Origin: a virus
Reading direction: 5' to 3' (one strand)
Virus record (IMG/VR): IMGVR_UViG_3300031512_000011
Location: 1-21,020 of that record
Length of the DNA: 21,020 bases
Shown: one piece after another, positions 1,611-19,127 of the stretch
Layout of the letters: each line of letters begins with the position of its first letter
Numbering within the stretch: position 1 is the first letter of the stretch
Notes under the pieces: generated by a model
Database searches by the model: none
What the model was told of the DNA's origin: nothing
What the model saw: the letters and a program-made list of their open reading frames with translations, nothing else
Position numbers and translations under genes: made by a program

Positions 1611-3968
1611 ATGGCCGGAGAAATCAGGGTACATATCATCGCCAAAGACCTTGCCTCCCCGGCCATCCGGGGAGTGGCTGGGTCTTTGCGGTCTCTGCAA
1701 GCCGAGGGACACGCGGTCGGCGGCGTGTTCGGCTTTTTGCGGGATGCGGCCGCTTCGGCGATGGGGTTTATCTCTGCAACAATTGTCAACAGCGGTGTGA
1801 TGGCACTGCGCAATCTCGGCGCCGAAGCGCTGAACGCAACGATGAATTTTGAGAGCTTGAGTATCATGCTTGAGGGGATGGTGGCAAGGGACCTCAAGCG
1901 CGCGTCCGATGGAACGCTGTCCTATGGCGACGCGCTCAAACAAGCCGGGGGAGCGTCTCAAGAACTCTTGCAATGGATTGAACAATTAGCCATCCGCTCT
2001 CCGTATGCCACGTCTGCCGTGACGGAGAGCTTTGCCCAGATGGCGCGCTACGGCTTTCCTATCGAGGAAGCCAAAGCGATGACACAAGCACTGCTCGATA
2101 TGGGCGCGGGCTCCGGCTTGACCACTGCCGAGCTCAACAGGGCTGCGTATGCTCTGGGGCAGATATATGCTTCCGACAAACTGCTCATCCAGGACTTGCG
2201 CCAGCTCATGAACGCCGGGATTGACGTGCGCTCGATTCTCGACCGCATGGGGGAGAGCTTCGAGAGCCTGCGGGAAAAGCAGGACAAAGGCGGAATCTCG
2301 ACCAAGGCATTTCTCGAAGCCTTCCGCGAGGTGGCGGGCGAGGACTACGCCGGAAACCTCGAACGCATGACCAAATCCTGGGCAGGTCTGGCAGGCGCTT
2401 TGCAGGACGTGAAGGAAATCGGCTTGCGGAAACTGTTTCAAGGGACGCTGGAAGTCTTGCAGCCTCTGGTTGCTCGTTTTACGGAGTGGATTTTGGGTCC
2501 GGGACTGGCGCGCCTGGAAGCCATCGGAAAGAGCCTTGGCGAGCTGACAGACAAAATTATCCGCATCGGGACGGCATTCTTCCAGACCGGCCCGCTGTCG
2601 ATAGAGTTTGCCGAATCGCTGCAGTTGGTCAGTGAGCGGTTCGGCGAGACCTACCGGGATAGGATAATCCCGGTGCTGGAGGATGTCTGGAGGAAGTTTT
2701 TGGAGTTCGGGGGGAAAATCAAGAACCTGTTCTCAACGCTTTTTGCCGAAGGGTTCTTCAGCGATGCCTTCCGCAAATCGGTTTATGACCTCTCTCCGCT
2801 TCTCGGCAAAGTTTATGACGACCTGTCATCCAGGCTAAAGCCGGCGATAGAGTGGATTATCGCCAACAGGGGAGCACTGCTTGAGACGGCAAAAGCCGTT
2901 GGGGCGGTGCTGCTGGCAGTCAAAGCCTTTTCCATCGTTTCAGGCGCTTTGTCGGGGCTCTCGGCTTTGCTTACGGCGCTGCTCTCCCCCATTGGGCTGC
3001 TCATCCTTACGGTTGGACTTCTCGCCTTCGCGTGGAACACAAACTTTGCCGGAATGCGTGACCAGTTGACGGCACTCTACAACGAGAGCATCCTGCCGAC
3101 CTTTGAGGCGATGAGACTTAAATTCGGCGAACTGAGCTTATCCCTGTCACAGATGGGCATCGACTGGCAGAGGATTTGGGGCGTTATCACAGGCTATTTC
3201 GCGTTTGCATTTGTCAATATGCGTCATCAGTTTGGCATGGTTTTGGCGCTTATCCGCGGCGACTTTGACGCGTTCGGGATGCACTTGCGGGAGTGGTTGG
3301 TAAACATCGGAGAGAAAATCGTCTCCCCCCTTATCAAGTGGCTGACGGGGATAGAAATCGATGCTCGCAAAGCCATCACGGGTTTTGGGACTTATATTTG
3401 GATGGCGATGGAGCTTTTGACGCTCAAAGTTTCCGGCGCTATCGAGACCATGAAAGCCAATGTCATCAACGGCTTTATCGGCATGTATAACGCCGTTATC
3501 GGGCAGGTAAACCGCTTTGCGGGTATCGCCGATGGCGTTATCCAGAAAATCAAGTCCGCCTTCAGCCCGGCGAGATTTGTTGGCATCGGAAAAGACATCG
3601 TGGACGGCATCATCAAAGGAGTACTCGATAACGCTTACCGTATTGCGCTGGCTTTCAACGGAGCGCTCATCCCGGTTATCAATGCCATCAAGGCTCTTCT
3701 TGGCATCTCGTCGCCAAGTAAGGTGTTCGCCCAGATTGGGCAGCAGATGGCGGCCGGGCTTGCTTTGGGCTATCAGCGCGGTCTGGGAGAGATAGCACTC
3801 CCCGGTGTCAAGATGACCTCTCTGCCTGCCGCAACCCCGGCGCCGGTCAGTATCAGCGTTGTCATCAACGCTCAAGTGAGCAGTGATATTGATTTGCAGA
3901 CTATGGCGCGGCGGGTAGCGGAGGAAATCCGCATGCGGGCGCTGCAAGGAAGAGGAGCAATTATCTGA
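1611..3968 (+). CDS. Tape measure protein
   Basis: This protein of about 785 residues sets the length of the tail and lies inside the tube before DNA ejection. The N-terminus (GEIRVHIIAKDLASPAIRGV) is the usual opening of the tape measure domain, followed by long amphipathic helices with heptad-like spacing. A strongly hydrophobic block at about residues 425-475 (AVGAVLLAVKAFSIVSGAL, then LLILTVGLLAFAW) and another near 520-548 could span the host membrane during DNA entry. By the usual relation of about 1.5 angstrom per residue, the tail would be roughly 115-120 nm, somewhat shorter than lambda's. The ATG at 1611 is preferred because AAGAGG (1600-1605) stands five bases before it; an in-frame GTG at 1605 is the alternative and overlaps the stop of the frameshifted chaperone. 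No lysozyme or peptidase motif is recognised. Confidence 0.85.
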   Translation: MAGEIRVHIIAKDLASPAIRGVAGSLRSLQAEGHAVGGVFGFLRDAAASAMGFISATIVNSGVMALRNLGAEALNATMNFESLSIMLEGMVARDLKRASDGTLSYGDALKQAGGASQELLQWIEQLAIRSPYATSAVTESFAQMARYGFPIEEAKAMTQALLDMGAGSGLTTAELNRAAYALGQIYASDKLLIQDLRQLMNAGIDVRSILDRMGESFESLREKQDKGGISTKAFLEAFREVAGEDYAGNLERMTKSWAGLAGALQDVKEIGLRKLFQGTLEVLQPLVARFTEWILGPGLARLEAIGKSLGELTDKIIRIGTAFFQTGPLSIEFAESLQLVSERFGETYRDRIIPVLEDVWRKFLEFGGKIKNLFSTLFAEGFFSDAFRKSVYDLSPLLGKVYDDLSSRLKPAIEWIIANRGALLETAKAVGAVLLAVKAFSIVSGALSGLSALLTALLSPIGLLILTVGLLAFAWNTNFAGMRDQLTALYNESILPTFEAMRLKFGELSLSLSQMGIDWQRIWGVITGYFAFAFVNMRHQFGMVLALIRGDFDAFGMHLREWLVNIGEKIVSPLIKWLTGIEIDARKAITGFGTYIWMAMELLTLKVSGAIETMKANVINGFIGMYNAVIGQVNRFAGIADGVIQKIKSAFSPARFVGIGKDIVDGIIKGVLDNAYRIALAFNGALIPVINAIKALLGISSPSKVFAQIGQQMAAGLALGYQRGLGEIALPGVKMTSLPAATPAPVSISVVINAQVSSDIDLQTMARRVAEEIRMRALQGRGAII

Positions 3969-5305
3969 TGACCATCTTCCGCCTGCGCTTCGATGATGTC
4001 GTTCTGGCAAGCAAGACGCTGACCCTGACGGCGTCGAACGGCTACGGCGTGCTGGACTATGAATGCGGCGCAGAAGAGGACGCGCTGACGCTCGCTCTTC
4101 TTGGGACATCGACCACACAAAACCTTTCCCTGCTTGGAGACCTGGAATGGGTGGCCGAGCGGGTGAGGGATTACAATAAAAACTCCGGCTTTGCGCGTGT
4201 ATATTTAGAACGTGACGTGAGCGACAGCGGCACAGATTATTACCGCACGCCGATTGATGACCTGCAGATTGAGCTTGACCGCGACTTTTACCGCGACCTG
4301 AACGGGCGCAAGCCGGAGGTGACGCTGAAAGTGAAACACCCGGCTTACTGGGAATCGGGCGAAGTTGGATTGAAAATGTACAACCCGCACGTCGCCGGCG
4401 ACACGGCTTCCCCGATTCGGGTTGACAATCTGACGAGCAATCAGGGCGGGACGCTGGGAAACTTCTACAGCTATCTGACCTATAACTACGCCGCGCACAC
4501 AAACGATTTTTCCAGCCATCTACCCTATCCGCTGAAAATCGAGTTGACCTCTCAAGACAGCAACGCCATCGATGCGGTTATCCTGACCGTTGGCAACCAG
4601 ATGAACAGCGGGGACAAGAATCAGCGCGTCTTCGACGCAAAGGACGGCGCGGGCGGTACGCAAAAGCCAGGGACGGCAGACTATAACAATTATCAATACG
4701 GATATTACAAAGAGCTAAACGTTAGTACAAGCTGGTCGAGCGTGATAAGCTGGACGATTAGTGATTTACGCATGTTCGAGTACGACCCGCTTCTGGTACT
4801 GGCGCGGGTGCTCAATCCCTCGGCAAATGTGAGACTTGGGGTGCGCATCGGCAAAGGCTCGGCGGTTTTCTCAGAATGGCGGCAGACCGAAGCCGAATCT
4901 GTCGAACTGATAAAGACGGGCATTCTGCGCACTACCGCGCTTGACCTGAGCACAAAATACGACACGACTTACAATCTGTCCCTGCTTGCCATAGCAGGGA
5001 CGAATACAACGCTCGAACTAGACTACTTGGAAATTTTTCCCGCTCAAGACCTGGTCGAGGTCTTTTCGGCTTCTGGGCGGGGTCTTGCAAACGGGGAGAA
5101 GCTTATCATCGATGGCGCAGAGCGCAGAGCATACGTCCAGGATGGCACTGGCAAAGTGATTGACCACTGGGTAATCCGGGGCGGGGGAAGTTTTACCTGC
5201 CTTCCGGGAACGGGCGCAGTAATCTATATCAAGATGCGCGGCGCGGGACATGTGTTGAAACGGGTCAACGCGCAGGTGTTTGCGAGAGCAAGGACGCGGG
5301 CATGA
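3968..5305 (+). CDS. Distal tail / baseplate protein (Dit-like)
   Basis: This 445-residue protein follows the tape measure gene with a TGATG overlap, the position of distal tail proteins that cap the tube and attach the baseplate. The N-terminal 130 residues (FRLRFDDVVLASKTLTL, LLGDLEWVAERVRDYN, PIDDLQIELDRDFYRDLNGR) resemble the siphovirus-type tail component fold in alternating beta pattern. A middle part of about 150-350 looks like a beta-sandwich, possibly carbohydrate binding (LKIELTSQDSNAIDAVILTV). The C-terminal part returns to a tail-like pattern ending in LKRVNAQVFARARTRA. No enzyme motif is visible. The family call rests on synteny and overall pattern; it could equally be named a generic minor tail protein. 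It overlaps the next start by four bases (ATGA). Confidence 0.6.
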   Translation: MTIFRLRFDDVVLASKTLTLTASNGYGVLDYECGAEEDALTLALLGTSTTQNLSLLGDLEWVAERVRDYNKNSGFARVYLERDVSDSGTDYYRTPIDDLQIELDRDFYRDLNGRKPEVTLKVKHPAYWESGEVGLKMYNPHVAGDTASPIRVDNLTSNQGGTLGNFYSYLTYNYAAHTNDFSSHLPYPLKIELTSQDSNAIDAVILTVGNQMNSGDKNQRVFDAKDGAGGTQKPGTADYNNYQYGYYKELNVSTSWSSVISWTISDLRMFEYDPLLVLARVLNPSANVRLGVRIGKGSAVFSEWRQTEAESVELIKTGILRTTALDLSTKYDTTYNLSLLAIAGTNTTLELDYLEIFPAQDLVEVFSASGRGLANGEKLIIDGAERRAYVQDGTGKVIDHWVIRGGGSFTCLPGTGAVIYIKMRGAGHVLKRVNAQVFARARTRA

Positions 5306-7574: not shown

Positions 7575-9101
7575 ATGGCTGTGATCAAGGTAATCGGGAG
7601 TTACGCTAATAAGGTTTTCGTCGCGGCAGGGGAGGAGTTACAAGTTTACGCGATGCAATATGATACGATTACCGTCGACGGCACACTGACCAAACTCAAT
7701 GGTGACCTGAGTGGTGGGACGTCTACGTTTATCGGTCTTACGGATACGCCGAACAGTTATTCAGGTCAAGCCAACAAGGTTGTCTCCGTCAAATCTGCCG
7801 AAGACGGTTTGGAGTTCAAAGTCATCCCACAAGGTACGGGGTCGCAAAATCAAGTCGTCTTTTGGGACGTGAATAACCAGATTAAAGCCATAACGGGTAT
7901 CGAATATGAGTCCACTTTGGACGCTCTAGCACTTATCGGCGACACCCTCTACGGAGATTATGGCGAGACCTTTTGGTCTCGTGGCTATGTAGACATACGA
8001 CGCATAACCGATAGTTATAATCCGTTCTTGGCTTTTTGGCGCTCTCGCCAAAGTGGAAGTGGAGCGGTGCAGAACAACGACCTGCTCGGTCGAATTTCCG
8101 CTCTCGGTCATGACGGCACTGATTGGGCTAGTGGAAGTCGGGTAAGGATAAATTTGCGAGCAGCACAAAACTGGTCGAGCACGGCACACGGTACAAAGCT
8201 GGACGTGGAAGTCACTCCAACGGGAAGTACTACTCCCGTCACTGCGGTCACGATTGACGAAAATGGGCTCAAAAACGAGCGCACTAACACGGTGCGAACA
8301 AAGGATTATACACTGACCGTGCCAGGGACTGGAACGGCAGTGTTGGGTTCAGGGACAACTAATACTATCCCCAAATTTACGGGGACGAATGCGATTGGGA
8401 ATAGTGTAATGAGTGAGATTTCGGATGGAGTGCAGATTCAAACTGGAAAGACTTTGGTACTAAATGGGTATGGGTTGGATACTATAGGTTATTTGGCAAA
8501 ATTTCCTCAAAATACTATTAGAGACCACTTCACAACTAGTAATATGTCATCCTATTGGAATGGGTGGACATATACTCCAGGTACTGTTAATTACAGTTCT
8601 CGTAATCATTTTCTTATTCCTTATAGCAATGCTGCTAATAGTACTTTTTTCTTATACAAGACTCAAACTGTTCCAACAGATGGATCTCAAATGGAGGCAT
8701 GGATTGGGACAGACCTGAAACAAACTAGTGCAGGAATACGTATGGATAATGGTTACGTTGACAATACAAATGAATACTCTGTAGAACTTTATCTAAAATC
8801 TGGAGTTGGGTCATATCCTTCAGGTGTTGCATTGTTTCTCCGAAGAAATGCTTATGGAACAATAACAGAAACGCAATTATGCGACCAATTTCCACCCTCC
8901 AAAGCGTATAGAGTAATATTACTACTTACTGGCACAACTGTATATGTTTATGCAGGGGATGAAATATTTATTGGTGTGTCAAGTTTAGGTGAAACTACAA
9001 TAGGTTCTAATATAACATTCCAAAGACATGGATTATTTGTCAGAGCAACTACCTCAGCTCAACGAATGGGACAATTTCATTATTACGCAACCAATTTCTA
9101 G
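7575..9101 (+). CDS. Tail fibre / receptor-binding protein
   Basis: This 508-residue protein has the modular look of a tail fibre. Residues about 50-80 contain the fibre-type repeat pattern FIGLTDTPNSYSGQANKVV and SAEDGLEFKV, seen near the shaft start of many fibres. The middle is beta-rich with Gly/Thr/Asn repeats (TNTIPKFTGTNAIGNSVM), and the last 200 residues look like a separate beta-sandwich tip. The GGAGGTG within the preceding frame (7563-7569) serves as ribosome site for ATG 7575, which follows the previous stop without a gap. From about 8430 to the end the DNA is markedly AT-rich with different codon use, suggesting that the host-recognition tip was exchanged by recombination. There is no signal peptide. 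Target receptor unknown. Confidence 0.65.
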   Translation: MAVIKVIGSYANKVFVAAGEELQVYAMQYDTITVDGTLTKLNGDLSGGTSTFIGLTDTPNSYSGQANKVVSVKSAEDGLEFKVIPQGTGSQNQVVFWDVNNQIKAITGIEYESTLDALALIGDTLYGDYGETFWSRGYVDIRRITDSYNPFLAFWRSRQSGSGAVQNNDLLGRISALGHDGTDWASGSRVRINLRAAQNWSSTAHGTKLDVEVTPTGSTTPVTAVTIDENGLKNERTNTVRTKDYTLTVPGTGTAVLGSGTTNTIPKFTGTNAIGNSVMSEISDGVQIQTGKTLVLNGYGLDTIGYLAKFPQNTIRDHFTTSNMSSYWNGWTYTPGTVNYSSRNHFLIPYSNAANSTFFLYKTQTVPTDGSQMEAWIGTDLKQTSAGIRMDNGYVDNTNEYSVELYLKSGVGSYPSGVALFLRRNAYGTITETQLCDQFPPSKAYRVILLLTGTTVYVYAGDEIFIGVSSLGETTIGSNITFQRHGLFVRATTSAQRMGQFHYYATNF

Positions 9102-9109
9102 GAGGACTT

Positions 9110-9568
9110 GTGGACATTTATCGTACAAAACACAACTCAATTTATACACAATCCAAAAAATACCCAGCTTTGTGGGTAGAAATAATGCTATCTGACAAGG
9201 ATACAGAAGAAGCTGCAGAGCAAAAATTGTTAGAACAATTGCAAAAAGCAGAAGCAGAATACGAACAAAATATGCATTTTATGCCAGACGAGGAAGGTAA
9301 TCTAATCGAAATTCAAAAAGACAAACCAACATTATCAACTATTAAACGCTGGATTCGCCAGTATCGCAATCAATTACTTGCCGAGAGTGATTTTGCTGTT
9401 TTACCTGATGTGCAAACTAACAAGTCTGCATGGCAAGCATATCGGCAACAATTGCGGGATTTGCCAGAGACGTGGAGGTTAGATACCGAGACTCCGAGTG
9501 TGGATGTATCGCAAATTCTGGAGTACGCGGATGTGGTAAAATTGCCGTTTCCGCAGAAGCCGGGTTAG
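9110..9568 (+). CDS. Tail fibre assembly chaperone (Phage_tail_APC-like)
   Basis: This 152-residue protein has an unstructured, Lys/Glu/Gln-rich first half and a C-terminal motif at residues about 83-120 (RQYRNQLLAESDFAVLPD followed by SAWQAYRQQLRDLPE). This closely follows the W-x-x-YR-x-x-LR-D-x-P signature of the tail assembly chaperone family commonly found right after tail fibre genes. Such proteins help fibres fold or trimerise. It begins with GTG at 9110, supported by GGAGGA at 9101-9106; an ATG in good position is lacking. The first half keeps the AT-rich composition of the fibre tip, while the last third returns to the surrounding composition, so chaperone and fibre tip may have been acquired together. 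Confidence 0.7.
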   Translation: MDIYRTKHNSIYTQSKKYPALWVEIMLSDKDTEEAAEQKLLEQLQKAEAEYEQNMHFMPDEEGNLIEIQKDKPTLSTIKRWIRQYRNQLLAESDFAVLPDVQTNKSAWQAYRQQLRDLPETWRLDTETPSVDVSQILEYADVVKLPFPQKPG

Positions 9569-10435: not shown

Positions 10436-11055
10436 AAGCGTTGAAGTATCCCTTCGTGGGAAGCTATCCAATCACCCAAAAGTTCGGCGAGAACCCGCAG
10501 GTTTACGCCCGTTTTGGCTTGGACGGGCATAACGGCGTTGATTTCGGTCTCCCTGTCGGAACGCCCGTCCTCGCCTGCGCCGACGGCGTGATTGAGCAGG
10601 TCAAGATGGATGCGCAGGGTTATGGACTGCATATCCGCCATCGGCTGGATTCGGCGTTTGGCAGGTATCTGGTCATCTACGCCCACCTGAGCCAGACGCT
10701 GGTCAAGCCGGGGGACTGGGTGATGTCCGGGCATCAAATCGCCTTGAGCGGTAATACCGGCTTCTCCACCGGCCCGCATCTGCACTTCGAGGTTCGGCTG
10801 GATAACAAAGCCGTTGACCCTCTGCCGCTGCTGGAGACAAGCGCAGAAGATGCCCAAAGCGAGAAGCTCCAGCCCGGCTTTGCGCGGGTGAGCGCCGAAG
10901 CCGGGCTGGTCATCCGCCTGAGCGGGCAGAGAGACGGAGACAACCGCCGGGGCTTGCTCAAGTACGGCGACACGGTCGAGGTCGTGCGGGAAGCGAACGA
11001 GAACGGCTATGTCGGCATCGTGCTGTATGTCAGCGAGAAGTACTTGACAAAGTAA
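10432..11055 (+). CDS. Endolysin, M23 (lysostaphin-type) peptidase with SH3-like C-terminus
   Basis: This 207-residue enzyme should cleave peptide bonds in the host peptidoglycan. The M23 zinc site is intact: H33-N-G-V-D37, Y83-A-H85 and H116-L-H118 in GPHLHFEV, where H33, D37 and H118 would bind zinc and H85 and H116 assist catalysis. The N-terminal part (YPITQKFGENPQVY) is the usual substrate-groove start of the family. Residues about 140-207 (FARVSAEAGLVIRLSG, YGDTVEVV) look like an SH3-type wall-binding domain. There is no signal peptide, so it depends on the holin. It starts in an ATGA overlap. Its final codons hold the -35 box (11044-11049) of the promoter for the first downstream small RNA. 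Confidence 0.85.
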   Translation: MKALKYPFVGSYPITQKFGENPQVYARFGLDGHNGVDFGLPVGTPVLACADGVIEQVKMDAQGYGLHIRHRLDSAFGRYLVIYAHLSQTLVKPGDWVMSGHQIALSGNTGFSTGPHLHFEVRLDNKAVDPLPLLETSAEDAQSEKLQPGFARVSAEAGLVIRLSGQRDGDNRRGLLKYGDTVEVVREANENGYVGIVLYVSEKYLTK

Positions 11056-11072
11056 TACTTTCGGCGTATAAT
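11044..11072 (+). promoter_or_regulatory. Consensus sigma-70 promoter P1 (small RNA 1)
   Basis: TTGACA (11044-11049), exactly 17 bases, then TATAAT (11067-11072): a perfect consensus match in both boxes and spacing. The -35 box lies inside the last codons of the endolysin gene. The predicted start is near 11080, which is precisely where a GGAT hairpin arm begins. Confidence 0.8.
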
Positions 11073-11079
11073 CTATGTT

Positions 11080-11147
11080 GGATTGAGACGGCGCCCCCTA
11101 CGTTCTCATCCTTTACCGCCCGCGACTTCCCGGGCGGTAAGTCTTTT
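11080..11147 (+). ncRNA. Predicted small RNA 1, about 68 nt
   Basis: From the expected start at 11080, the transcript folds into a first hairpin: GGAT (11080-11083) pairs with ATCC (11108-11111), GAGA with TCTC and CG with CG, with single-base bulges and an exposed C-rich loop GCGCCCCCTA. One base later a terminator hairpin begins and ends in a T-run at 11147. The two stems leave nearly no unpaired sequence outside the loop, and no open frame with a ribosome site exists. It is not a family I recognise. It could alternatively be the leader of the replication operon with a terminator that is read through under antitermination. Confidence 0.55.
11113..11147 (+). terminator. Intrinsic terminator T1
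   Basis: TTACCGCCCG (11113-11122) is the perfect complement of CGGGCGGTAA (11131-11140), with an 8-base loop, followed by GTCTTTT. It ends small RNA 1 and would also stop late lysis transcripts. Confidence 0.85.
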
Positions 11148-11155
11148 AACCCCGC

Positions 11156-11184
11156 TTGACATCGGTCAGGAAGTACTGTAAAAT
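11156..11184 (+). promoter_or_regulatory. Sigma-70 promoter P2 (small RNA 2)
   Basis: TTGACA (11156-11161), 17 bases, TAAAAT (11179-11184). Only nine bases separate the end of terminator T1 from the -35 box, so this is an independent transcription unit. Expected start near 11191. Confidence 0.75.
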
Positions 11185-11190
11185 AAAACC

Positions 11191-11264
11191 GGCATGGAAA
11201 TTAGCTCCTTTCTTGCCTTCCTTCACTTTGCAATAGCCGTGCGAAACGGCTATTGCAATTTTTT
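11191..11264 (+). ncRNA. Predicted small RNA 2, about 74 nt, with anti-Shine-Dalgarno loop
   Basis: From the expected start, GGCA (11191-11194) pairs with TGCC (11214-11217) and GAAA (11197-11200) with TTTC (11209-11212), displaying the loop TTAGCTCC (11201-11208). A short pyrimidine-rich linker follows, then a strong terminator. The loop is the exact complement of GGAGCTAA, which occurs at the ribosome binding sites of the genes starting at 12436, 13865 and 18498; for the last two the complementarity extends to 14 bases. By analogy with known C-rich-loop bacterial small RNAs, it could repress or tune translation. A tiny ATG frame inside it has no ribosome site. The alternative is a transcription attenuator before the replication genes. 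Confidence 0.55.
11228..11264 (+). terminator. Intrinsic terminator T2
   Basis: TTGCAATAGCCGT (11228-11240) and ACGGCTATTGCAA (11246-11258) form a perfect 13-bp stem with a 5-base loop, followed by six T. One of the strongest terminators in the window. Confidence 0.9.
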
Positions 11265-11355: not shown

Positions 11356-12405
11356 ATGTTTTACAACCCCGGCGAAATTCTAATCATCAACCCAAGGTTA
11401 GCCGCTAAGCTGGGTCTCAACGAAGCCATCATCCTCCAGCAGCTCCACTATTGGCTTGAGATGCCCGGCGTCGGTGAGATTGACACCGACGGCCACAAGT
11501 GGGTTTATAACACCTACGACCAATGGCACGAGAACTTTCCGTTTTTCTCCGTCATGACCATCAAGAGAACGTTCCTAAAACTTGAAAAGGACAGCATCAT
11601 CGTTGCAAAACACAAAGCGCGTTGCGGGAGACGAACGAAGTACTACCGCATCAACTACGAAGCCCTGCGCCGTCTGGAAATTGAAGAAGCCAACCCGGGA
11701 ACGCCAGAAACACCGGAAGACTACCGCGGCGAACTTCCCCTTCCCCCAACTCTAGAAGAGCTTGATAGATTGGAGGAAACATCGTATCAAAATGACATCC
11801 AAAGCGATGCATTAACATCATCATATCAATTTGAAACGCAATCATTGTGTCAGATTGATACGTTAGCATCATATCAATCTGACACGTTCTTAATTAACAA
11901 AGACTACGAATCCAAAGACTACGGTTTAACAGAGACTACAAAGGCGCGCTATCGCGCGCGCGAGCCAGGGGGGGTTGATTTTTGCGAACGACCGGCTGTT
12001 CAGGAAAGCGAGGACTTTCGGGAAAAACGCGCGAAGCGGAGCGACGCGCGGAAAGGCGCCGCCGCGAATTGCGCCGTCCTTGAGGAGGTGCCGCAGGAGG
12101 AAGTTTCCGCGGGCGATTTCCGCTGGCTCAAGAAGCAGTATCATGAGCTTGCGCGTGCCTTTCTGGAATTTGCCGGAGATGTCTATTACCCGCGCACGGC
12201 ATCGGAGCGCAAGCTCTGGTACAAGACGTTGCATGAGTGGTATCTGATTGACGCGCGCCGCGAGGATGTGCGGGAGGCCGTCCTGAAACTGCGCAAGGAC
12301 GGCTTGACGATTGGGGGAATCCAGAGCATCACCAAGACCTTGCGCGCCGTGAAAGCATCTGCGCATTACGACCCGCTTGAACTGCTCGGTTATCAGCGGC
12401 TTTGA
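11356..12405 (+). CDS. Replication initiator with winged-helix N-terminus (DnaD / lambda O-like)
   Basis: A 349-residue protein. Residues about 1-100 form a winged-helix domain of the phage replisome-organiser type (LAAKLGLNEAIILQQLHYWL, then TIKRTFLKLEKDSIIVAK and KYYRIN). A variable linker follows (about 105-230, with repeated SYQxD elements) and then a helical C-terminal domain (WLKKQYHELARAFLEFAGDV, REAVLKLRKDGLTIGGIQ). Such proteins bind iterons at the origin and load the helicase, encoded here immediately downstream. The linker region of the gene carries four 17-bp iterons and an AT-rich repeat tract, the same design as lambda O with its internal origin. ATG 11356 is chosen for the ribosome site AAAGGAAG (11342-11349); an in-frame TTG at 11320 lacks one. 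Confidence 0.75.
   Translation: MFYNPGEILIINPRLAAKLGLNEAIILQQLHYWLEMPGVGEIDTDGHKWVYNTYDQWHENFPFFSVMTIKRTFLKLEKDSIIVAKHKARCGRRTKYYRINYEALRRLEIEEANPGTPETPEDYRGELPLPPTLEELDRLEETSYQNDIQSDALTSSYQFETQSLCQIDTLASYQSDTFLINKDYESKDYGLTETTKARYRAREPGGVDFCERPAVQESEDFREKRAKRSDARKGAAANCAVLEEVPQEEVSAGDFRWLKKQYHELARAFLEFAGDVYYPRTASERKLWYKTLHEWYLIDARREDVREAVLKLRKDGLTIGGIQSITKTLRAVKASAHYDPLELLGYQRL
11783..11886. repeat. Four 17-bp iterons, consensus CRTATCAATYTGACACG
   Basis: Copies lie at 11783-11799 (+, four mismatches), 11822-11838 (+), 11846-11862 (reverse strand) and 11870-11886 (+). Copies 3 and 4 together form an inverted repeat with perfect 14-base arms, GTGTCAGATTGATA (11847-11860) and TATCAATCTGACAC (11872-11885), around an 11-base spacer. 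The last three copies are 24 bp apart centre to centre. They fall in the variable linker of the initiator gene, and the encoded SYQxD repeats are their by-product. Confidence 0.75.
11783..11939. other. Predicted replication origin inside the initiator gene
   Basis: Iterons are followed directly by an AT-rich segment (TTCTTAATTAACAAAG, 11887-11902) and three direct repeats of the type CAAAGACTACG at 11898-11908, 11913-11923 and (as CAGAGACTAC) 11930-11939. Iterons followed by an AT-rich unwinding region inside the initiator coding sequence, with the helicase gene next, is the arrangement of the lambda origin in gene O. The call is inferred from this architecture. Confidence 0.6.
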
Positions 12406-12435
12406 GCGGATTTTCTGCAAGACAGGAGCTAAAGG

Positions 12436-13749: not shown

Positions 13750-13757
13750 CTTTAGGA

Positions 13758-13779
13758 AAGATTAAAGTAAGATTAAAGT
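13758..13779. promoter_or_regulatory. Tandem 11-bp repeats upstream of PA (candidate regulator site)
   Basis: AAGATTAAAGT occurs twice in direct tandem (13758-13768 and 13769-13779), one helical turn apart, flanked by GGAAA and TTTCC. The second copy ends 12 bases before the -35 box, a typical activator position. Copy B has the same pair with two changes. Confidence 0.55.
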
Positions 13780-13791
13780 TTCCAAAACCTC

Positions 13792-13820
13792 TTGACATCT
13801 TTAGAATAATATGTTATGAT
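13792..13820 (+). promoter_or_regulatory. Sigma-70 extended -10 promoter PA
   Basis: TTGACA (13792-13797), 17 bases, TATGAT (13815-13820), with TG one base before the -10 box (extended -10). The start is expected near 13827. A small dyad TAGAC-(12)-GTCTA (13822-13843) overlaps the start and could be an operator. It should drive the operon 13865-18407. Confidence 0.8.
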
Positions 13821-13864
13821 ATAGACAATCAAACGGAAGTCTAACAAAAAGAAAGGAGCTAAAA

Positions 13865-14173
13865 ATGAACCCCAACACCAAAAAACTCTCGAAAAAGCAA
13901 AAAGCGACAGTACAAGCGCATTCTTTAGGTGATGTGCTGATTGTTAACCGCTACACTGCCCCTGAGTTTATCGGAACTTATTACCAAGACGGCATCCGCT
14001 ACAAGCTGTTTTACCAGTTTGACCTGGTGAAGCAGCTTCACTGCATCGGAATTTGGAAATATTGCGAGTTTAACACTATCAAGGCTACAAGTCGTTACTA
14101 TGACGGCGCAATCACGAAAGAGCAGGCGATTTCGGCCGTTATCGATGCGTTTTCTTTGACCGAAGGGGGGTAA
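13865..14173 (+). CDS. Unknown 102-residue protein, first gene of the PA operon
   Basis: I do not recognise this protein. It begins MNPNTKKLSKKQKATV, a basic flexible start whose first six codons are shared with the gene at 18498 as part of the duplicated promoter-leader. The rest is a mixed alpha/beta domain (residues 20-100) with many aromatics: VLIVNRYTAPEFIGTYYQDG, then YKLFYQFDLVKQLHCIGIWK and a C-terminal helix KEQAISAVIDAFSL. No metal or nucleotide motif is seen. The ribosome site AAGAAAGGAGCTAA (13850-13863 region) is the site complementary to small RNA 2. The stop at 14171-14173 is followed within two bases by the GTG of the ATPase gene, suggesting coupled translation and perhaps a common role. 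Confidence 0.75.
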   Translation: MNPNTKKLSKKQKATVQAHSLGDVLIVNRYTAPEFIGTYYQDGIRYKLFYQFDLVKQLHCIGIWKYCEFNTIKATSRYYDGAITKEQAISAVIDAFSLTEGG

Positions 14174-14174
14174 T

Positions 14175-15116
14175 GTGAACGTGAGCTATATCGACCAGAT
14201 TAAAAACTGCCTTCAAGCCAGCATCGATGCTGGCTTGAACGCCATCCTGATTTCCCCCCCGGGCTGGGGAAAATCCAAGATGGCATTTGAGAGCGCCCGG
14301 TCGCTCTACGGCGACCAGGTGCTCTTCCTCGAGCTTTCCCCCTCGACGCCCCCGGAAGTAGTCGAGGGGGCAATTGACCTGGCCGCCCTGCGGGAAGGGC
14401 GTCTGGCGCGCAACATCGAACGCACGCCCTACGACCCGTCTGTCAAGCTCGTCATTTTGGACGAGTTATGGCGGGCGAACGAGGTGGTGTTCGATTTACT
14501 ATTGCACGCCACCCAGCCGGTAACGCGCGTTTCTCCCCCAGTTTTCTGGGGGACAAGCAACTTTATCAGCAGGGACAAGCGGTTCGATGCCCTGCGCGAC
14601 CGTTTTGCCTTATGGCTCTGGCTTGAGCCGGTCTTCACTCGCGACGCCATTTTAGATTCGCTTGACCTCGCCCTCACCCCTCCCGGCGAGCCGGTCATGG
14701 AAACCGCCGAGGCGCGGGAGCGCGCTTTCCAACTCGCCGAGCAGGCAATCGGGAGCGGGTTTGGGGTCAACCCGCGCATTTTCGGCTACTGGGTGCGGGT
14801 GTTCGAGCGCTGCCCCAATCCGCTCGATGCTTTGTTGTACTGTTACCCCCTAGAGGGACCCGACCAGGCGTCCCGCTGGTCGGAGGTTATATCGGCAATC
14901 GCCGACCCGGAGGCGGCCGCCGTCCAGGGCTTCATGGCGACCGTGGAACTGCGCCTGAAAGACCTTGACGGCATGAGCCGGCATGACGGCATTGCCCTCT
15001 TTGGCGAGCTGGTCGCAGAAGCCGAGCGGGCGCTCGGCGGATATGAAAAGGGCAAGGAAGCGGTAGAGGTGCTGAAGAAACGATTTTTAGATTACGTTGC
15101 CGGAGGGAAGTCATGA
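14175..15116 (+). CDS. MoxR-family AAA+ ATPase
   Basis: A 313-residue ATPase with Walker A PPGWGKS at residues 28-34, Walker B LVILDE at 92-97, sensor 1 GTSN at 126-129 and a DALRDRF segment (138-144) holding the likely arginine finger. The short N-terminus and the W in Walker A fit MoxR/RavA-like ATPases, which work as chaperone motors with VWA-domain partners to insert metal cofactors or remodel protein complexes. The partner gene follows with an ATGA overlap. It starts with GTG (14175) after a G-rich ribosome site AAGGGGGG (14163-14170); the overlapping ATG at 14173 is in a frame that stops at once. Its function in a phage is unknown; virion assembly, remodelling of host complexes or counter-defence are all possible. 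Confidence 0.85.
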   Translation: MNVSYIDQIKNCLQASIDAGLNAILISPPGWGKSKMAFESARSLYGDQVLFLELSPSTPPEVVEGAIDLAALREGRLARNIERTPYDPSVKLVILDELWRANEVVFDLLLHATQPVTRVSPPVFWGTSNFISRDKRFDALRDRFALWLWLEPVFTRDAILDSLDLALTPPGEPVMETAEARERAFQLAEQAIGSGFGVNPRIFGYWVRVFERCPNPLDALLYCYPLEGPDQASRWSEVISAIADPEAAAVQGFMATVELRLKDLDGMSRHDGIALFGELVAEAERALGGYEKGKEAVEVLKKRFLDYVAGGKS

Positions 15117-16354
15117 CCGGCATTCCCTCTTCGGTCGGCGGCATCATGGCGACCAGGGTTGGTCTTGACCCGATGCTGGTTGCCCTCGGTCGTCGGCTTC
15201 CTAACCCGCTGATGAAGGATGATGACTTCCAGGCCGGCATCGCCAACGACCTTTTCTGGAAGTTCTTCGCGGGTGGGGAGCTTCCCCACGACCCGCGCGT
15301 CCGCCCGAACGCAGGTCTCCTAGACATCCTGGAGGAGCGGAACGTCTTCGGACGCAAGACGGTCGGGCGCCTGTTCCTCTCCCGCGCCGCTGCCGTCCTA
15401 ACCTGGGAGGCGATTGCGGAACTTGCGCGTGAATATCGCCAAAATACCACCCGAGTTGTGAGCCAGCAGGATTCCTTCCGTGAGCTGTTCGAGGAAGGAA
15501 AACTCTCTCCAACCTTTTCGGCAATGCTTGCCGAAAAACTTGCCCAAGTCCCAAAGGACCTGGAGACCGCGAATGCGATTGTGCGGTCTGTCGGCAAGGA
15601 GGAGGGGGAACTCGGCCAGGTCGACGTCACGGGAATTATCAATCTGGCGCGCAAGCTCGACGCCGAGGTCTTGCGCCGTTTTCTCGGCGCGGCGCGGGCG
15701 ATGCTTGCGCCGCGGAAGGTACGCGTTCGAGAGTCGCGCCTTACGCGCGATATTCTCAACGCCTTTCCGACCGAGCGCCTACTGCTCTTTGACGAGCAGT
15801 TCGGCGACTATAAACTGCTCCAGTATGCCCGGCATGGGCTGCTGGGGCTTGAGCCCTTCGCCGAAGGAGGACATGGCGGGGACATCTTCGTCCTCATCGA
15901 CGGCAGCGGGTCGATGCTGGATGATAACCGTCTGGTATGGGCGCATGCCCTATTCCTGGCGTTGCTTGAGGCAAGCAGGGATAGCCGCCGCCGCTGCCGG
16001 GGCGCGGTATTCGGCTCGGCAGGAGAGTATCTCTTCCGCGACGACCCGCTGGGCATCATCGGCTTTTCCTTCGGCTTAGGGACATCATTCGACTACGCTC
16101 TGACCGAGACGATGAATCTTGTTAAGCCCGGTGAGGAAATTATCATCCTCACCGACGGCGAAGACAGCGTCGGCGAGGACGTCAGGCAGAAATTCCTCGC
16201 CGGCAGTTACAGGCTGACCACCATTCTCATAAGGTCAGGTAATCAGTCTCTAAAGGAGCTATCGCGCGCCGTAATCTCCATCGATAACATCTCGCAAGGC
16301 GCGATTGAACGCGCAGCCGAACAGCTACGCAAAAGTATTTTTGAGGAGGAATAG
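15113..16354 (+). CDS. VWA-domain (MIDAS) partner of the MoxR ATPase
   Basis: This 413-residue protein ends in a von Willebrand factor A domain (about 255-405) with a complete metal ion-dependent adhesion site: DGSGS at 263-267, T324 in GLGTSFD and TDGED at 347-351. The N-terminal 250 residues are helical with basic patches (LARKLDAEVLRRFLGAARAM), as in CoxE or ViaA-like proteins that bind the ATPase and its client. Gene order, overlap and domain set match MoxR-VWA pairs of the RavA-ViaA and CoxD-CoxE kind. ATG 15113 is favoured by the ATGA overlap; Met12 is a possible later start. No signal peptide or membrane anchor is visible, so it acts in the cytoplasm. Its client is unknown. Confidence 0.85.
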   Translation: MTGIPSSVGGIMATRVGLDPMLVALGRRLPNPLMKDDDFQAGIANDLFWKFFAGGELPHDPRVRPNAGLLDILEERNVFGRKTVGRLFLSRAAAVLTWEAIAELAREYRQNTTRVVSQQDSFRELFEEGKLSPTFSAMLAEKLAQVPKDLETANAIVRSVGKEEGELGQVDVTGIINLARKLDAEVLRRFLGAARAMLAPRKVRVRESRLTRDILNAFPTERLLLFDEQFGDYKLLQYARHGLLGLEPFAEGGHGGDIFVLIDGSGSMLDDNRLVWAHALFLALLEASRDSRRRCRGAVFGSAGEYLFRDDPLGIIGFSFGLGTSFDYALTETMNLVKPGEEIIILTDGEDSVGEDVRQKFLAGSYRLTTILIRSGNQSLKELSRAVISIDNISQGAIERAAEQLRKSIFEEE

Positions 16355-16356
16355 AC

Positions 16357-16866
16357 ATGGGAATAGACATGGGAAACGAAGAATTTAAAAAGGCTATGAA
16401 GTTGGTCGAGGGAATGATGAACGGCATTGAAGTTGTTGCGGAAAATCTCGACCTGATTTTCGGCGTCTTTACCGCCTGTCTGGATGTCGCCCGCACGGCT
16501 TTGACCCTTGAACGGGTCGAAGCCGGCGCTTTTCGCGACCTGCTCATCGAACTTACCGGCTATTTCGAGCGCCAGGACGCCGCCGGACAGTTTATCATCC
16601 AGCGCTTTATCATCGCCTGGATGATAAACTTCGTCCGCATGATGGCGGACGAGTTCGAGTCTACCGACAAGGGCCGGGCGCATGAACTGCGCCTGCTGGT
16701 CGGGCGCGCCTTGCGCTCAATGGGGATTTACGATGAGCAGAGCGGTGACTGCAAGGTCTGCGGCGCCGCGTCACTATTTGGCGTCAACCCCCATGAAGAA
16801 GATTGCGTTTACGGGGGGACGCGCTATAAGAATTTGTACATTCGTGGGGGTAGGAATGGCGAGTAG
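16357..16866 (+). CDS. Unknown helical protein with C-terminal zinc site, third gene of the MoxR-VWA set
   Basis: A 169-residue protein of unknown function. Residues 8-125 are predicted helical (KKAMKLVEGMMNGIEVVAEN, then FIIQRFIIAWMINFVRMMAD). The C-terminal 45 residues carry C132-x2-C135 and H146-x3-C150 (DCKVCGAA and PHEEDC), a likely single zinc site. ATG 16357 is chosen since GAGGAGGA (16343-16350) is at ideal distance; a 12-base direct repeat puts a second, in-frame ATG at 16369. It directly follows the VWA gene with only two bases between, and could be an adaptor or client of the pair. Similar three-gene sets of ATPase, VWA protein and variable third protein exist in bacterial conflict systems, but homology to those third components is not evident here. 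Confidence 0.7.
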   Translation: MGIDMGNEEFKKAMKLVEGMMNGIEVVAENLDLIFGVFTACLDVARTALTLERVEAGAFRDLLIELTGYFERQDAAGQFIIQRFIIAWMINFVRMMADEFESTDKGRAHELRLLVGRALRSMGIYDEQSGDCKVCGAASLFGVNPHEEDCVYGGTRYKNLYIRGGRNGE

Positions 16867-17116
16867 TTATCCGGCCGGATTGGTGAGGGATGTCTTGCGC
16901 ATCTGTCTGCAGATGCTTGAGTCTTTGTCGTCAGAAGAGATTGCCTTTGAGAGTGAGGATGACTTGCGTTTATTCCTGCTCTCATTGTTGATGGTAGTTG
17001 GTGCGGTTGCTGACAGTTATGAAGAAGATGGAGAAGGTGTCCTGAGGATTATATCTCGGGGGCTGATTCATATGATAGCGGAGGATATACATGGAGACGG
17101 CGAGCAGACATATTAG
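16856..17116 (+). CDS. Unknown small acidic helical protein
   Basis: An 86-residue protein starting MASSYPAGLVRDVLRICLQM. It is acidic and helical throughout (ESLSSEEIAFESEDDLRLFL, SLLMVVGAVADSYEEDGEG) with no recognised motif. Start ATG 16856 lies inside the end of the previous gene (11-base overlap) and follows GGGGGTAGGA; the frame continues further upstream but only as a shadow of the previous gene. Its helices resemble the middle part of the preceding protein in style (RFIIAWMINFVRMMADEFES against FLLSLLMVVGAVADSYEEDG), so a diverged relation is conceivable, but this is a visual impression only. Confidence 0.6.
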   Translation: MASSYPAGLVRDVLRICLQMLESLSSEEIAFESEDDLRLFLLSLLMVVGAVADSYEEDGEGVLRIISRGLIHMIAEDIHGDGEQTY

Positions 17117-17444
17117 TTTGCTTCTCTTATTGTCCACTTTTGCGCTGGCGGCGGCGTCTGTTTTAGCGATAGCGCCGGTTGAGGACTTGGTCATCCTTCC
17201 CCATGCGCTTGGTCATTCGGCAGAGCTATGGTGTGCCGAGCGCATCCAGGCGTATATGTCCGGCAAGTGCAAGCCCCAGGTCTGTCAATGTCAAACGCGC
17301 TCTTATTACCTCTGCCCCGACCCGCGCCACGGCGCGCGCTGGCTGGGGCTGGTTGTGACCGGTGACGGCAAGGTTATCACCGGTTTCACCGCCAGGCGGG
17401 AGTACTGGCAGAAGAAAATCAAAAACTGTCTTTGCATGAGGTGA
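17091..17444 (+). CDS. Cysteine-rich exported or membrane-anchored protein
   Basis: A 117-residue protein with an N-terminal hydrophobic segment (SLLLLLSTFALAAASVLAIA, about residues 9-28) preceded by one Arg and one His. It is a signal peptide or anchor. The mature part has seven cysteines (including KCKPQVCQCQ and NCLCMR) and ends with a beta-rich stretch GLVVTGDGKVITGFTARREY. The pattern of His-containing helix, strands and a TGF/YW ending is faintly like small BECR-fold nucleases or DUF4258-type domains; this is weak. GGAGGA (17080-17085) five bases before ATG 17091 fixes the start. It overlaps the previous gene by 26 bases. Placement amid small membrane proteins suggests a host-surface task such as superinfection exclusion, not demonstrated. 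Confidence 0.6.
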   Translation: METASRHISLLLLLSTFALAAASVLAIAPVEDLVILPHALGHSAELWCAERIQAYMSGKCKPQVCQCQTRSYYLCPDPRHGARWLGLVVTGDGKVITGFTARREYWQKKIKNCLCMR

Positions 17445-17450
17445 AAGAAG

Positions 17451-17585
17451 ATGGAAAAGATAATCTGTCTGTCTGTGTTGATTGTTCTGGTCTTCTTCTA
17501 TTCCGTCCTGCTGTACTCGCTCCTGCGGGTAGCGTCTTGGGCGGACGATAAAATCGAGGAGATGCGCGATGAGCGGGAAGTATAA
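17451..17585 (+). CDS. Very small single-pass membrane protein
   Basis: A 44-residue frame starting MEKIICLSVLIVLVFF, with one membrane segment (about residues 4-27) and a charged C-terminal tail DDKIEEMRDEREV. The upstream AAAGAAG is a weak ribosome site, but the gene fits exactly between neighbours and its tail encodes the ribosome site GAGGAG (17556-17561) of the next gene. Function unknown. Confidence 0.55.
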   Translation: MEKIICLSVLIVLVFFYSVLLYSLLRVASWADDKIEEMRDEREV

Positions 17586-17769
17586 AGTGCTTGAAGGCTT
17601 CGCGTGGCTGATGATAGCCGCGCGGGACGAAGACGAAGCCCTGGCGATTGCCGGGCGGTTCTACGGCGTTGATGAGGACAATATCGACATCGTCTTTGTC
17701 AACGGTTATTATTTCGCGCGCGTGCGCGAGGAGGCAAAAGATGGAAGAGATAATCCACAAGGGAAATGA
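17569..17769 (+). CDS. Unknown 66-residue protein
   Basis: This small alpha/beta protein starts MSGKYKVLEGFAWLMIAARD and continues with EDEALAIAGRFYGVDEDNID and a strand VFVNGYYFARVREE. It resembles a single ferredoxin-like or ubiquitin-like unit, without a recognised family. ATG 17569 stands seven bases after GAGGAG (17556-17561) and overlaps the preceding small membrane gene by 17 bases. The next gene starts inside its end. No function can be assigned. Confidence 0.6.
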   Translation: MSGKYKVLEGFAWLMIAARDEDEALAIAGRFYGVDEDNIDIVFVNGYYFARVREEAKDGRDNPQGK

Positions 17770-18091
17770 CGTTTACGTCAAGGTCGATGGGGAGGTCTAC
17801 AAGCTGATGCGCATCAAGCGCATCGTCCGCACGCATCTTGCCGACTACTACGTCATCGACCGCGACTATTTCATGCCCGACAAGCAGCAGATATTGTTTG
17901 CTGGCGTTAACAGAGATGACCTGTCGTCGAGGTCGCTCGATTCCGTTATTACCCTGCGCGCGCAGGGCATCGACATCGCCGAGATGTGCGGTTACCGGCT
18001 AATCGATGTCGTCTACCTCGGCGACATGGCGGTTGAGAACCTGCTCCATGACGTATACATCTTCGTCCGCGTCCATGAGTCCGAACTATAG
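17741..18091 (+). CDS. Unknown 116-residue protein
   Basis: A predominantly beta-strand protein starting MEEIIHKGNDVYVKVDGEVY, then YYVIDRDYFMPDKQQILFAG and a C-terminal part IDVVYLGDMAVENLLHDVYI. No motif is recognised. ATG 17741 follows GAGGAGG (17728-17734) by six bases, which decides it over an upstream ATG in the same frame that lies deep inside the previous gene. It overlaps its neighbours by 29 and 17 bases, indicating coupled expression with the nuclease gene that follows. Confidence 0.65.
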   Translation: MEEIIHKGNDVYVKVDGEVYKLMRIKRIVRTHLADYYVIDRDYFMPDKQQILFAGVNRDDLSSRSLDSVITLRAQGIDIAEMCGYRLIDVVYLGDMAVENLLHDVYIFVRVHESEL

Positions 18092-18407
18092 CCGTACAAT
18101 CAATCTTATCTGCGACCGCCTGGGGATAGAGCGTCCCCAGGCGGAGTTTCGTTTTCACCCGGTGCGCAAGTTCCGCTTTGATTACGCCTGGCCGTCGCGC
18201 CGGTTATATGTCGAGATAGAGGGGGGCATATGGGTGCGTGGTCGGCACGTCCGCCCGGCGACGTACGAAGTCGACTGCGAGAAGTATAACCTCGCAACCC
18301 TGATGGGCTGGCGCGGCTTCCGCTTCACGCCGGCGATGCTCAAGGACGGGCGGGCACTTAGGACGCTGGCGGACTATTTCAGAGCGGAAAGATTAAAGGA
18401 AGATTAG
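18075..18407 (+). CDS. Vsr-like PD-(D/E)XK endonuclease
   Basis: This 110-residue protein has the layout of small phage nucleases with the very-short-patch-repair fold: E24 in QAEFRFHP, D36 in FRFDYAWP, the E47-x-E49 pair in YVEIEGGIW, H58 in RGRHVR and K70 in DCEKYN, then GWRGFRFTP near residues 78-86. The acidic residues would bind magnesium for cleavage of DNA. Phage members of this group are often found beside replication and recombination genes and are suspected to resolve branched DNA or nick specific sites. The start at ATG 18075 has no visible ribosome site but overlaps the previous gene by 17 bases, so it is probably translated by coupling. It is the last gene of the PA operon; no terminator is seen before the next promoter. 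Confidence 0.75.
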   Translation: MSPNYSRTINLICDRLGIERPQAEFRFHPVRKFRFDYAWPSRRLYVEIEGGIWVRGRHVRPATYEVDCEKYNLATLMGWRGFRFTPAMLKDGRALRTLADYFRAERLKED

Positions 18408-18411
18408 AGTT
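18390..18411. promoter_or_regulatory. Tandem 11-bp repeats upstream of PB
   Basis: AAGATTAAAGG (18390-18400) and AAGATTAGAGT (18401-18411) form the same head-to-tail pair as at copy A, again ending 11 bases before the -35 box. Confidence 0.5.
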
Positions 18412-18422
18412 TCCAAAATCTC

Positions 18423-18451
18423 TTGACATTGCTATCATAATATGTTATTAT
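18423..18451 (+). promoter_or_regulatory. Sigma-70 extended -10 promoter PB
   Basis: TTGACA (18423-18428), 17 bases, TATTAT (18446-18451), with the same TG-T extension. Start near 18458. The dyad TAGAC/GTCTA recurs at 18453-18474. It should drive the genes from 18498 onward. Confidence 0.8.
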
Positions 18452-18497
18452 ATAGACAATCAAACGGAAGTCTAATAAAGAAAGGAGCTAACGAAAA

Positions 18498-18668: not shown

Positions 18669-18773
18669 CGTGAATTAAAAGCGAGGGTCTCCAAAAGTCA
18701 GTAAACTTACATCTTCCTCAGGAGACCCTCACTCAATCCAAAAGTCAACCCAAAAGAAAGGAGCAAACGAAAA
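18669..18773 (+). promoter_or_regulatory. Intergenic leader with long-loop hairpin and repeated 11-mer
   Basis: GAGGGTCTCC (18683-18692) and GGAGACCCTC (18721-18730) form a perfect 10-bp stem with a 28-base loop. TCCAAAAGTCA occurs twice, once across the 5' arm/loop (18690-18700) and once after the stem (18737-18747). No T-run follows, so it is not a standard terminator. The end of the region (from about 18752) repeats the leader of copy B almost base for base through ATGAACCCC, with GGAGCAAA in place of GGAGCTAA, but no promoter copy precedes it. Confidence 0.55.
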
Positions 18774-19127
18774 ATGAACCCCAGAAAATTCAAATTCATC
18801 AATCTGACACCGCACACCGTCCGTATTATTCACAATGAAGAAGTCATCGAAATTCCGCCATCCGGAACGGTTGCCCGGGTGGATACCATCCGGAAGCAGA
18901 CTGGCACTATCAATAATATTCCTGTTTATTCCGTGCGGTACACCAGCATCAACCTCCCGGACCCTGAGTTATATACCTTTTACATCGTCTCTTCCCTGGT
19001 GCAACAATATGCCCCCTGGCGTAAAGACCTTGTCAGCCCCGATACGTCGCCCGACTCCGTCGTCCGCGACGGCGACGGCAACATCGTTGCCGTGCGCGGC
19101 CTTATGCGCCTTGGGGACGCGAGTTGA
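18774..19127 (+). CDS. Conserved phage protein of unknown function
   Basis: A 117-residue beta-rich protein. Its start (FKFINLTPHTVRIIHNEEVI) and the elements IPPSGTVARVDTIRK, LYTFYIVSSLVQQYAPWRKD and DGDGNIVAVRGLM follow a pattern I know from many phage hypothetical proteins (LTPH-V-IPPSG-AR ... YIVS ... R-DL-P ... VRD-G-I-AVR). No function is established for them to my knowledge. The ATG at 18774 has AAAGAAAGGAGC nine to eleven bases upstream and lies in the third, partial copy of the duplicated leader, with MNP as its first residues. No metal or catalytic motif is visible. It probably belongs to the PB transcript. Confidence 0.7.
   Translation: MNPRKFKFINLTPHTVRIIHNEEVIEIPPSGTVARVDTIRKQTGTINNIPVYSVRYTSINLPDPELYTFYIVSSLVQQYAPWRKDLVSPDTSPDSVVRDGDGNIVAVRGLMRLGDAS

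What the first reader, a model, noticed from the sequence alone, without database searches (positions are those of the whole stretch)
11201..11208. Loop of small RNA 2 is the exact complement of a ribosome-site octamer shared by three phage genes
The loop TTAGCTCC pairs with GGAGCTAA, present at the ribosome sites of the helicase (12425-12432), the PA operon leader gene (13856-13863 region) and the PB leader gene (18486-18493). For the last two, pairing extends to 14 bases (AAGAAAGGAGCTAA) and includes flanks outside the Shine-Dalgarno core. The 18774 gene has GGAGCAAA. Other genes in the window use GAGGAGG or GGAGGTG instead. This would be a phage-encoded trans-acting RNA that coordinates translation of the replication gene and the two duplicated-leader operons. 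Caution: any strong ribosome site is partly complementary to CTCCTTTC, as is 16S rRNA, so the GCTAA flank carries the argument.
Basis: partly seen in the sequence, partly recalled or inferred. Interest (0 to 1): 0.8.

Follow-up and report, generated by a model that had tools for sequence, protein, structure and literature searches.

The report
Phage antisense RNA for ribosome sites
An uncultured phage carries a gene for a roughly 75-base RNA whose exposed loop is the exact mirror partner of the ribosome-landing sites of its DNA helicase and of two other operons, so it probably acts as a self-made switch that damps translation of those genes together; this is inferred from sequence and has not been shown by experiment.

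Summary
The complementarity is real. RNA 2 (about 11190-11264) has its own near-consensus sigma-70 promoter, a 5' hairpin whose 8-nt apical loop is UUAGCUCC (11201-11208), and a strong terminator. The loop plus descending stem arm (11201-11214) pairs 14/14 with the gene starts at 13865 and 18498, 13/14 at 18774, and 15/16 (11201-11216) at the helicase, 12436. Using overlapping contigs I covered the remaining 10.2 kb of the 31.2-kb genome: on the coding strand, this is the only 14-mer complementary (at most 1 mismatch) to four of 43 gene starts; nothing outside it reaches two. Shuffles give about 5e-5, or 0.003 when the anti-Shine-Dalgarno core is held fixed. Three of the four targets are paralogous leaders, so there are only two independent targets. 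Best explanation: a trans-acting phage antisense RNA that blocks ribosome entry, like P1/P7 c4, CyaR or RNAIII in mechanism but matching no Rfam family. Transcription, pairing and effect are all inferred. No diverged relative carrying the element was found, so the covariation test could not be made. Rivals: a leader RNA acting in cis, or a vestigial inverted gene start.

The parts
11156..11184 (+). Promoter of RNA 2: TTGACA, 17-nt spacer, TAAAAT (11/12)
11190..11264 (+). RNA 2, putative small RNA of about 75 nt (start inferred 6-7 nt after the -10 box, end at the T run)
   Evidence: promoter and terminator; fold -29.4 kcal/mol, z = -5.7; transcription itself not shown
11191..11217 (+). 5' hairpin of RNA 2, GGCA.GGAAA / UUUCUUGCC
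11201..11208 (+). Apical loop UUAGCUCC, complement of GGAGCUAA; opening cost about 0 kcal/mol
11201..11216 (+). Seed region: loop plus descending stem arm, 14-16 nt complementary to gene starts
11228..11264 (+). Intrinsic terminator of RNA 2: 13-bp stem, 5-nt loop, T6
12417..12432 (+). Target 1: ribosome site of the DnaB-like helicase (start 12436), 15/16 paired, duplex -22.1 kcal/mol
   Evidence: helicase by PHROGs, Pfam and NCBIfam
13849..13862 (+). Target 2: ribosome site of the PA leader gene (start 13865), 14/14, duplex -20.9
18478..18491 (+). Target 3: ribosome site of the PB leader gene (start 18498), 14/14, duplex -20.9
18754..18767 (+). Target 4: ribosome site of gene 18774, 13/14 (GGAGCAAA), duplex -18.5; paralogue of targets 2 and 3
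13755..13848 (+). PA promoter repeat (94 nt, 89% identical to 18386-18479), carries TTGACA-17-TATGAT
18386..18479 (+). PB promoter repeat, carries TTGACA-17-TATTAT
11044..11149 (+). RNA 1, tandem upstream small-RNA gene: promoter TTGACA-17-TATAAT (12/12), hairpin with C-rich loop, terminator 11112-11141. Not part of the pairing, but shows that the gap holds two promoter-RNA-terminator units
   Evidence: no comparable target match

Best explanation
RNA 2 is a phage-encoded, trans-acting antisense small RNA. It is transcribed from its own promoter between the lysis genes and the replication genes. It presents the loop UUAGCUCC as a seed, which docks on GGAGCUAA in accessible ribosome sites. The helix then zippers into the descending stem arm to 14-16 pairs, covering the Shine-Dalgarno sequence and stopping 30S binding. 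Its targets are the DnaB-like helicase (but not the DnaD-like loader in front of it) and the first genes of two operons driven by duplicated promoters, with a fourth weaker target at 18774. The expected result is a joint brake or delay on helicase level and on the two accessory operons. Shown here: sequence, predicted folds, statistics. Inferred: transcription, pairing in vivo, the sign and timing of the effect.
For: It is the only 14-mer on the 31.2-kb coding strand, apart from positions overlapping it, that matches two or more gene starts, and it matches 4 of 43. Shuffle frequencies are 5e-5, or 0.003 with the anti-SD core fixed. The loop boundary coincides with the complementary octamer and needs no opening energy. 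The helicase site is matched independently of the leaders, on both sides of the SD (GCAAGA and CTAA). Duplexes of -18.5 to -22.1 kcal/mol exceed anti-SD pairing (-8.9 to -12.6); net of opening costs they are -10.2 to -13.6, and the targets are cheap to open, 2.2-2.6 kcal/mol. An 11/12 promoter precedes and a 13-bp plus T6 terminator follows on the same strand. In 239 sequences (the window and 238 loci) scanned the same way, no other intergenic candidate had a promoter of 10/12 or better. No GGAGCTAA site, and no site within 3 mismatches of AAGAAAGGAGCTAA, exists in the 10.2-kb structural half.
Against: No RNA data exist. Three of the four targets are duplicates of one leader. CTCCTTTCT is also the 16S 3' end, so part of the match is what any anti-SD would show. 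All contigs with RNA 2 are one species, so nothing can be said on selection or covariation. The opposite strand reads AAGAAAGGAGCTAATTTCC-ATG with a 9-codon frame, so an inverted gene start is conceivable.
Confidence: 0.66

Rival explanations
1. RNA 2 is a terminated leader (attenuator product) of the DnaD-DnaB operon that acts mainly in cis: read-through transcripts carry the hairpin, which folds back on the helicase ribosome site 1.2 kb downstream.
For: No promoter of 9/12 or better lies between the terminator (11264) and the DnaD start at 11356, so the replication operon may depend on read-through.
Against: The 5' hairpin and the terminator are separate and do not form alternative folds, so there is no attenuation switch; cis action would not explain the exact match to the PA and PB leaders, which have their own promoters.
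Confidence: 0.14
2. The site is a vestigial or inverted copy of the phage's leader ribosome site, or a chance match inflated by the common Shine-Dalgarno core, without regulatory function.
For: The minus strand reads AAGAAAGGAGCTAATTTCCATG followed by a 9-codon frame; the CTCCTTTCT core is shared with 16S rRNA; the octamer count alone is at expectation.
Against: Homology stops at the 14-16 paired bases and the flanks differ; no minus-strand promoter is predicted nearby and the recognisable genes lie on the plus strand; the core-fixed null still gives only 0.003; promoter, hairpin and terminator all sit on the plus strand.
Confidence: 0.14
3. RNA 2 is a general anti-Shine-Dalgarno decoy that damps host (AAAGGAG-type) translation, and the phage matches are secondary.
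For: The loop contains CUCCUUUC, the same letters as the 16S 3' tail; other strong SDs in the phage also pair moderately.
Against: The UUAG flank gives the phage targets extra pairs; other gene starts tested pair about 5-13 kcal/mol more weakly with the seed.
Confidence: 0.06

Closest known systems
c4 antisense RNA of phages P1 and P7 (Rfam RF01695)
   Same: Short phage RNA whose loops are complementary to a phage mRNA around the ribosome site and block translation (review PMC12197685)
   Different: c4 controls the ant operon; RNA 2 has no Rfam match and several targets, one of them a helicase
E. coli CyaR and S. aureus RNAIII/Rsa RNAs with C-rich or anti-SD hairpin loops
   Same: Hairpin loop with an anti-SD or C-rich motif used on several mRNAs (PMC2837412)
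   Different: Those are bacterial regulators; RNA 2 is phage-encoded and its specificity lies in the UUAG flank of the core
P4 CI RNA
   Same: Phage antisense RNA that keeps phage replication genes down (PMC4825925)
   Different: CI RNA acts by transcription termination in the lysogenic state; here the match is to ribosome sites, and the genes tested gave no integrase or repressor match
P22 sar RNA, lambda OOP RNA
   Same: Phage antisense RNAs acting on phage mRNAs, sar by interfering with translation initiation (PMC12197685)
   Different: From general knowledge both are encoded opposite their single target; RNA 2 is encoded elsewhere and pairs by 14-16 nt with several

Membership tests
Trans-encoded base-pairing small RNA | Separate transcription unit with promoter and intrinsic terminator | tested here: met
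   (sequence prediction only; no RNA data)
Trans-encoded base-pairing small RNA | Accessible seed complementary to mRNA ribosome sites beyond chance | tested here: met
Trans-encoded base-pairing small RNA | Changes target translation or stability | not testable with these tools
   needs reporter or infection experiments
Trans-encoded base-pairing small RNA | Seed and targets conserved or covarying in relatives | tested here: inconclusive
   only same-species contigs carry RNA 2
c4 antisense RNA (RF01695) | Match to the covariance model | tested here: not met
   no hit at gathering score nor at E up to 10
Attenuator / riboswitch leader | Mutually exclusive terminator and antiterminator folds | tested here: not met
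   independent hairpins in the fold of the RNA
Leader-peptide mRNA | Translated short ORF with ribosome site | tested here: not met
   the AUG at 11194 is 4-5 nt from the predicted 5' end, has no SD, and its frame runs through the terminator hairpin (read from the sequence)

The most novel reading that the evidence does not exclude
A phage regulates its own helicase and two accessory operons as a small 'RNA regulon': one trans-acting RNA whose loop acts as a second, phage-specific anti-Shine-Dalgarno, with targets multiplied by duplicating the leader that carries the site. A second tandem RNA (RNA 1, C-rich loop) may serve another class of ribosome sites.
Probability: 0.4. Interest if true: 0.68.

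Novelty: new variant of a known kind. Interest (0 to 1): 0.55.

Why it matters
The phage antisense RNAs described in the review read here mostly silence one phage gene, or act on host genes. A phage RNA with several phage targets, including a replicative helicase, would be a compact way to time replication without a protein. It also gives a simple search rule for other uncultured phages: a same-strand, promoter-led hairpin loop complementary to several gene starts. That rule was tried on 239 sequences here and picked out only this case.

Tried and rejected
Relatives by the loop sequence in viral contigs: 14 hits, only L008 (same phage) in a promoter-hairpin context. Promoter-plus-loop pattern: two further hits, L288 and L289, judged chance (coding or antisense of a gene start). 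Relatives by helicase, PA ATPase, DnaD alignment, terminase and endolysin: the terminase has many relatives at 44-57% identity, but 30 records tested, mostly these, have no DnaD match, and no diverged relative has the RNA. Chloroflexota genomes (400 per query) gave no close prophage. De novo scan of 239 sequences for same-strand multi-target 13-mers: the higher-scoring ones in enterobacterial prophages (CATTGGTCA...) lack a strong promoter and are probably antisense of gene starts that my gene caller missed. RNA 1: no multi-target match; a 10-nt match at 18732 is at chance level.

Full report
What is there. The gap between the M23 endolysin (ends 11055) and the DnaD-like loader (starts 11356) holds two tandem promoter-RNA-terminator units, all on the coding strand. 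The second, RNA 2, has TTGACA-17-TAAAAT, a predicted start at about 11190, a 5' hairpin closing the 8-nt loop UUAGCUCC, and a 13-bp terminator with T6; it folds far better than shuffles (z = -5.7). Rfam has no match.

The match. The loop is the complement of GGAGCUAA. With the descending stem arm it pairs 14/14 with the starts at 13865 and 18498, 13/14 with 18774 and 15/16 with the helicase start at 12436.

Is it chance? Contig L187 overlaps both ends of the window, giving a closed map of 31,184 bp. I took 43 gene starts (manual list) and scanned all 14-mers of the coding strand. Only 11201-11214 is complementary, with at most one mismatch, to four; apart from the two positions overlapping it, nothing reaches two; the reversed sequence gives none. 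Shuffling the 5' segment gives four targets in 1 of 20,000. Holding CTCCTTTCT fixed, the fair null because any anti-SD would carry it, gives four targets in 57 of 20,000 and helicase plus leader in 72 of 20,000. The gene-start list and the choice of word length were mine, made after seeing the finding. The bare octamer with one mismatch is at expectation.

Energetics. Seed opening costs 0 for the loop and 5.9 kcal/mol for 14 nt; targets cost 2.2-2.6; duplexes are -18.5 to -22.1, against -8.9 to -12.6 for canonical anti-SD pairing. The PA leader is essentially unstructured. The host's own 16S tail is not known; the canonical one was used.

Independence. PA, PB and 18774 leaders are copies of one another, so they count as one target plus duplications. 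The helicase site is the second.

Relatives. IMG/VR contig L015 is a second strain of the same phage: from 9456 on, through RNA 1, RNA 2 and the helicase, it differs by one base before the leader. It lacks the stretch between the two leaders (about 13.85-18.48 kb), apparently by recombination between the 94-bp promoter repeats, and keeps one leader with the 14-nt target. It therefore gives no test of covariation. Terminase relatives are common, but 30 records tested, mostly these, have no DnaD match. The best host hint is Chloroflexota for the DnaD-like protein (L106); this is weak.

Mechanism. I commit to translational repression in trans by blocking the ribosome site, at 0.66. It would leave the DnaD-like loader (3 mismatches) free while braking the helicase, and damp both accessory operons. 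Whether this delays replication, sets copy number or serves as immunity cannot be told; the genes tested gave no integrase or repressor match, though not every gene was tested.

Rivals. A cis-acting leader is possible because no good DnaD promoter was found, but it would not explain the PA/PB matches. A vestigial inverted gene start is possible because the minus strand reads SD-ATG with nine codons; the plus-strand promoter, hairpin and terminator speak against it.

Known relatives in mechanism. c4 of P1/P7, sar, OOP, P4 CI RNA, CyaR and RNAIII. It works like these; by sequence and structure it is not a member of an Rfam family.

Noticed in passing
window 13850-18480; L015 5355-5484: The PA operon (AAA/MoxR-like ATPase and others) is missing in strain L015, which carries a junction of the PA promoter with the PB leader, consistent with recombination between the 94-bp direct repeats.
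   Followed up: partly
window ends; L187 1-1400 and 11565-15045: L187 overlaps both ends of the window, so the phage map closes at about 31,184 bp with genes apparently all on one strand.
   Followed up: yes
window 11044-11149: RNA 1: a 12/12 sigma-70 promoter, hairpin with loop GGCGCCCCCUAC and a terminator. Target class unclear; AGGGGG occurs at the gene starts 14175 and 19905.
   Followed up: partly
L292 5853-5970: Downstream of a 48%-identical endolysin in a distant prophage lie a 9/12 promoter, a 16-bp hairpin with a C-rich loop (CCCCCCU) and a second stable hairpin: same layout as RNA 1, but no phage gene start with the full complement was seen.
   Followed up: partly
window 18732-18741: 10-nt exact complement of the 5' end of RNA 1 (TTGGATTGAG), 33-42 nt upstream of gene 18774; about 0.8 such matches are expected by chance in the genome.
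   Followed up: no
window 18774-19127: Product matches PADLOC Unk_01, 'unknown small protein, sometimes fused to CARF' (E 6e-25), and PHROGs 21731 and 30542 of unknown function.
   Followed up: no
L187 2386-3540: ABC-type ATPase fused to a GNAT acetyltransferase domain (phrog_11143, unknown function).
   Followed up: no
window 8401-9455: Sharp rise of divergence between strains (about 74% identity at 8401-8790) in the gene 7575/9110 region, typical of a variable tail-end module.
   Followed up: no
window 3968 gene start (3943-3975): GCAAGGAAGAGGAGC pairs with RNA 2 at -25 kcal/mol with interruptions, a possible fifth, weaker target.
   Followed up: no
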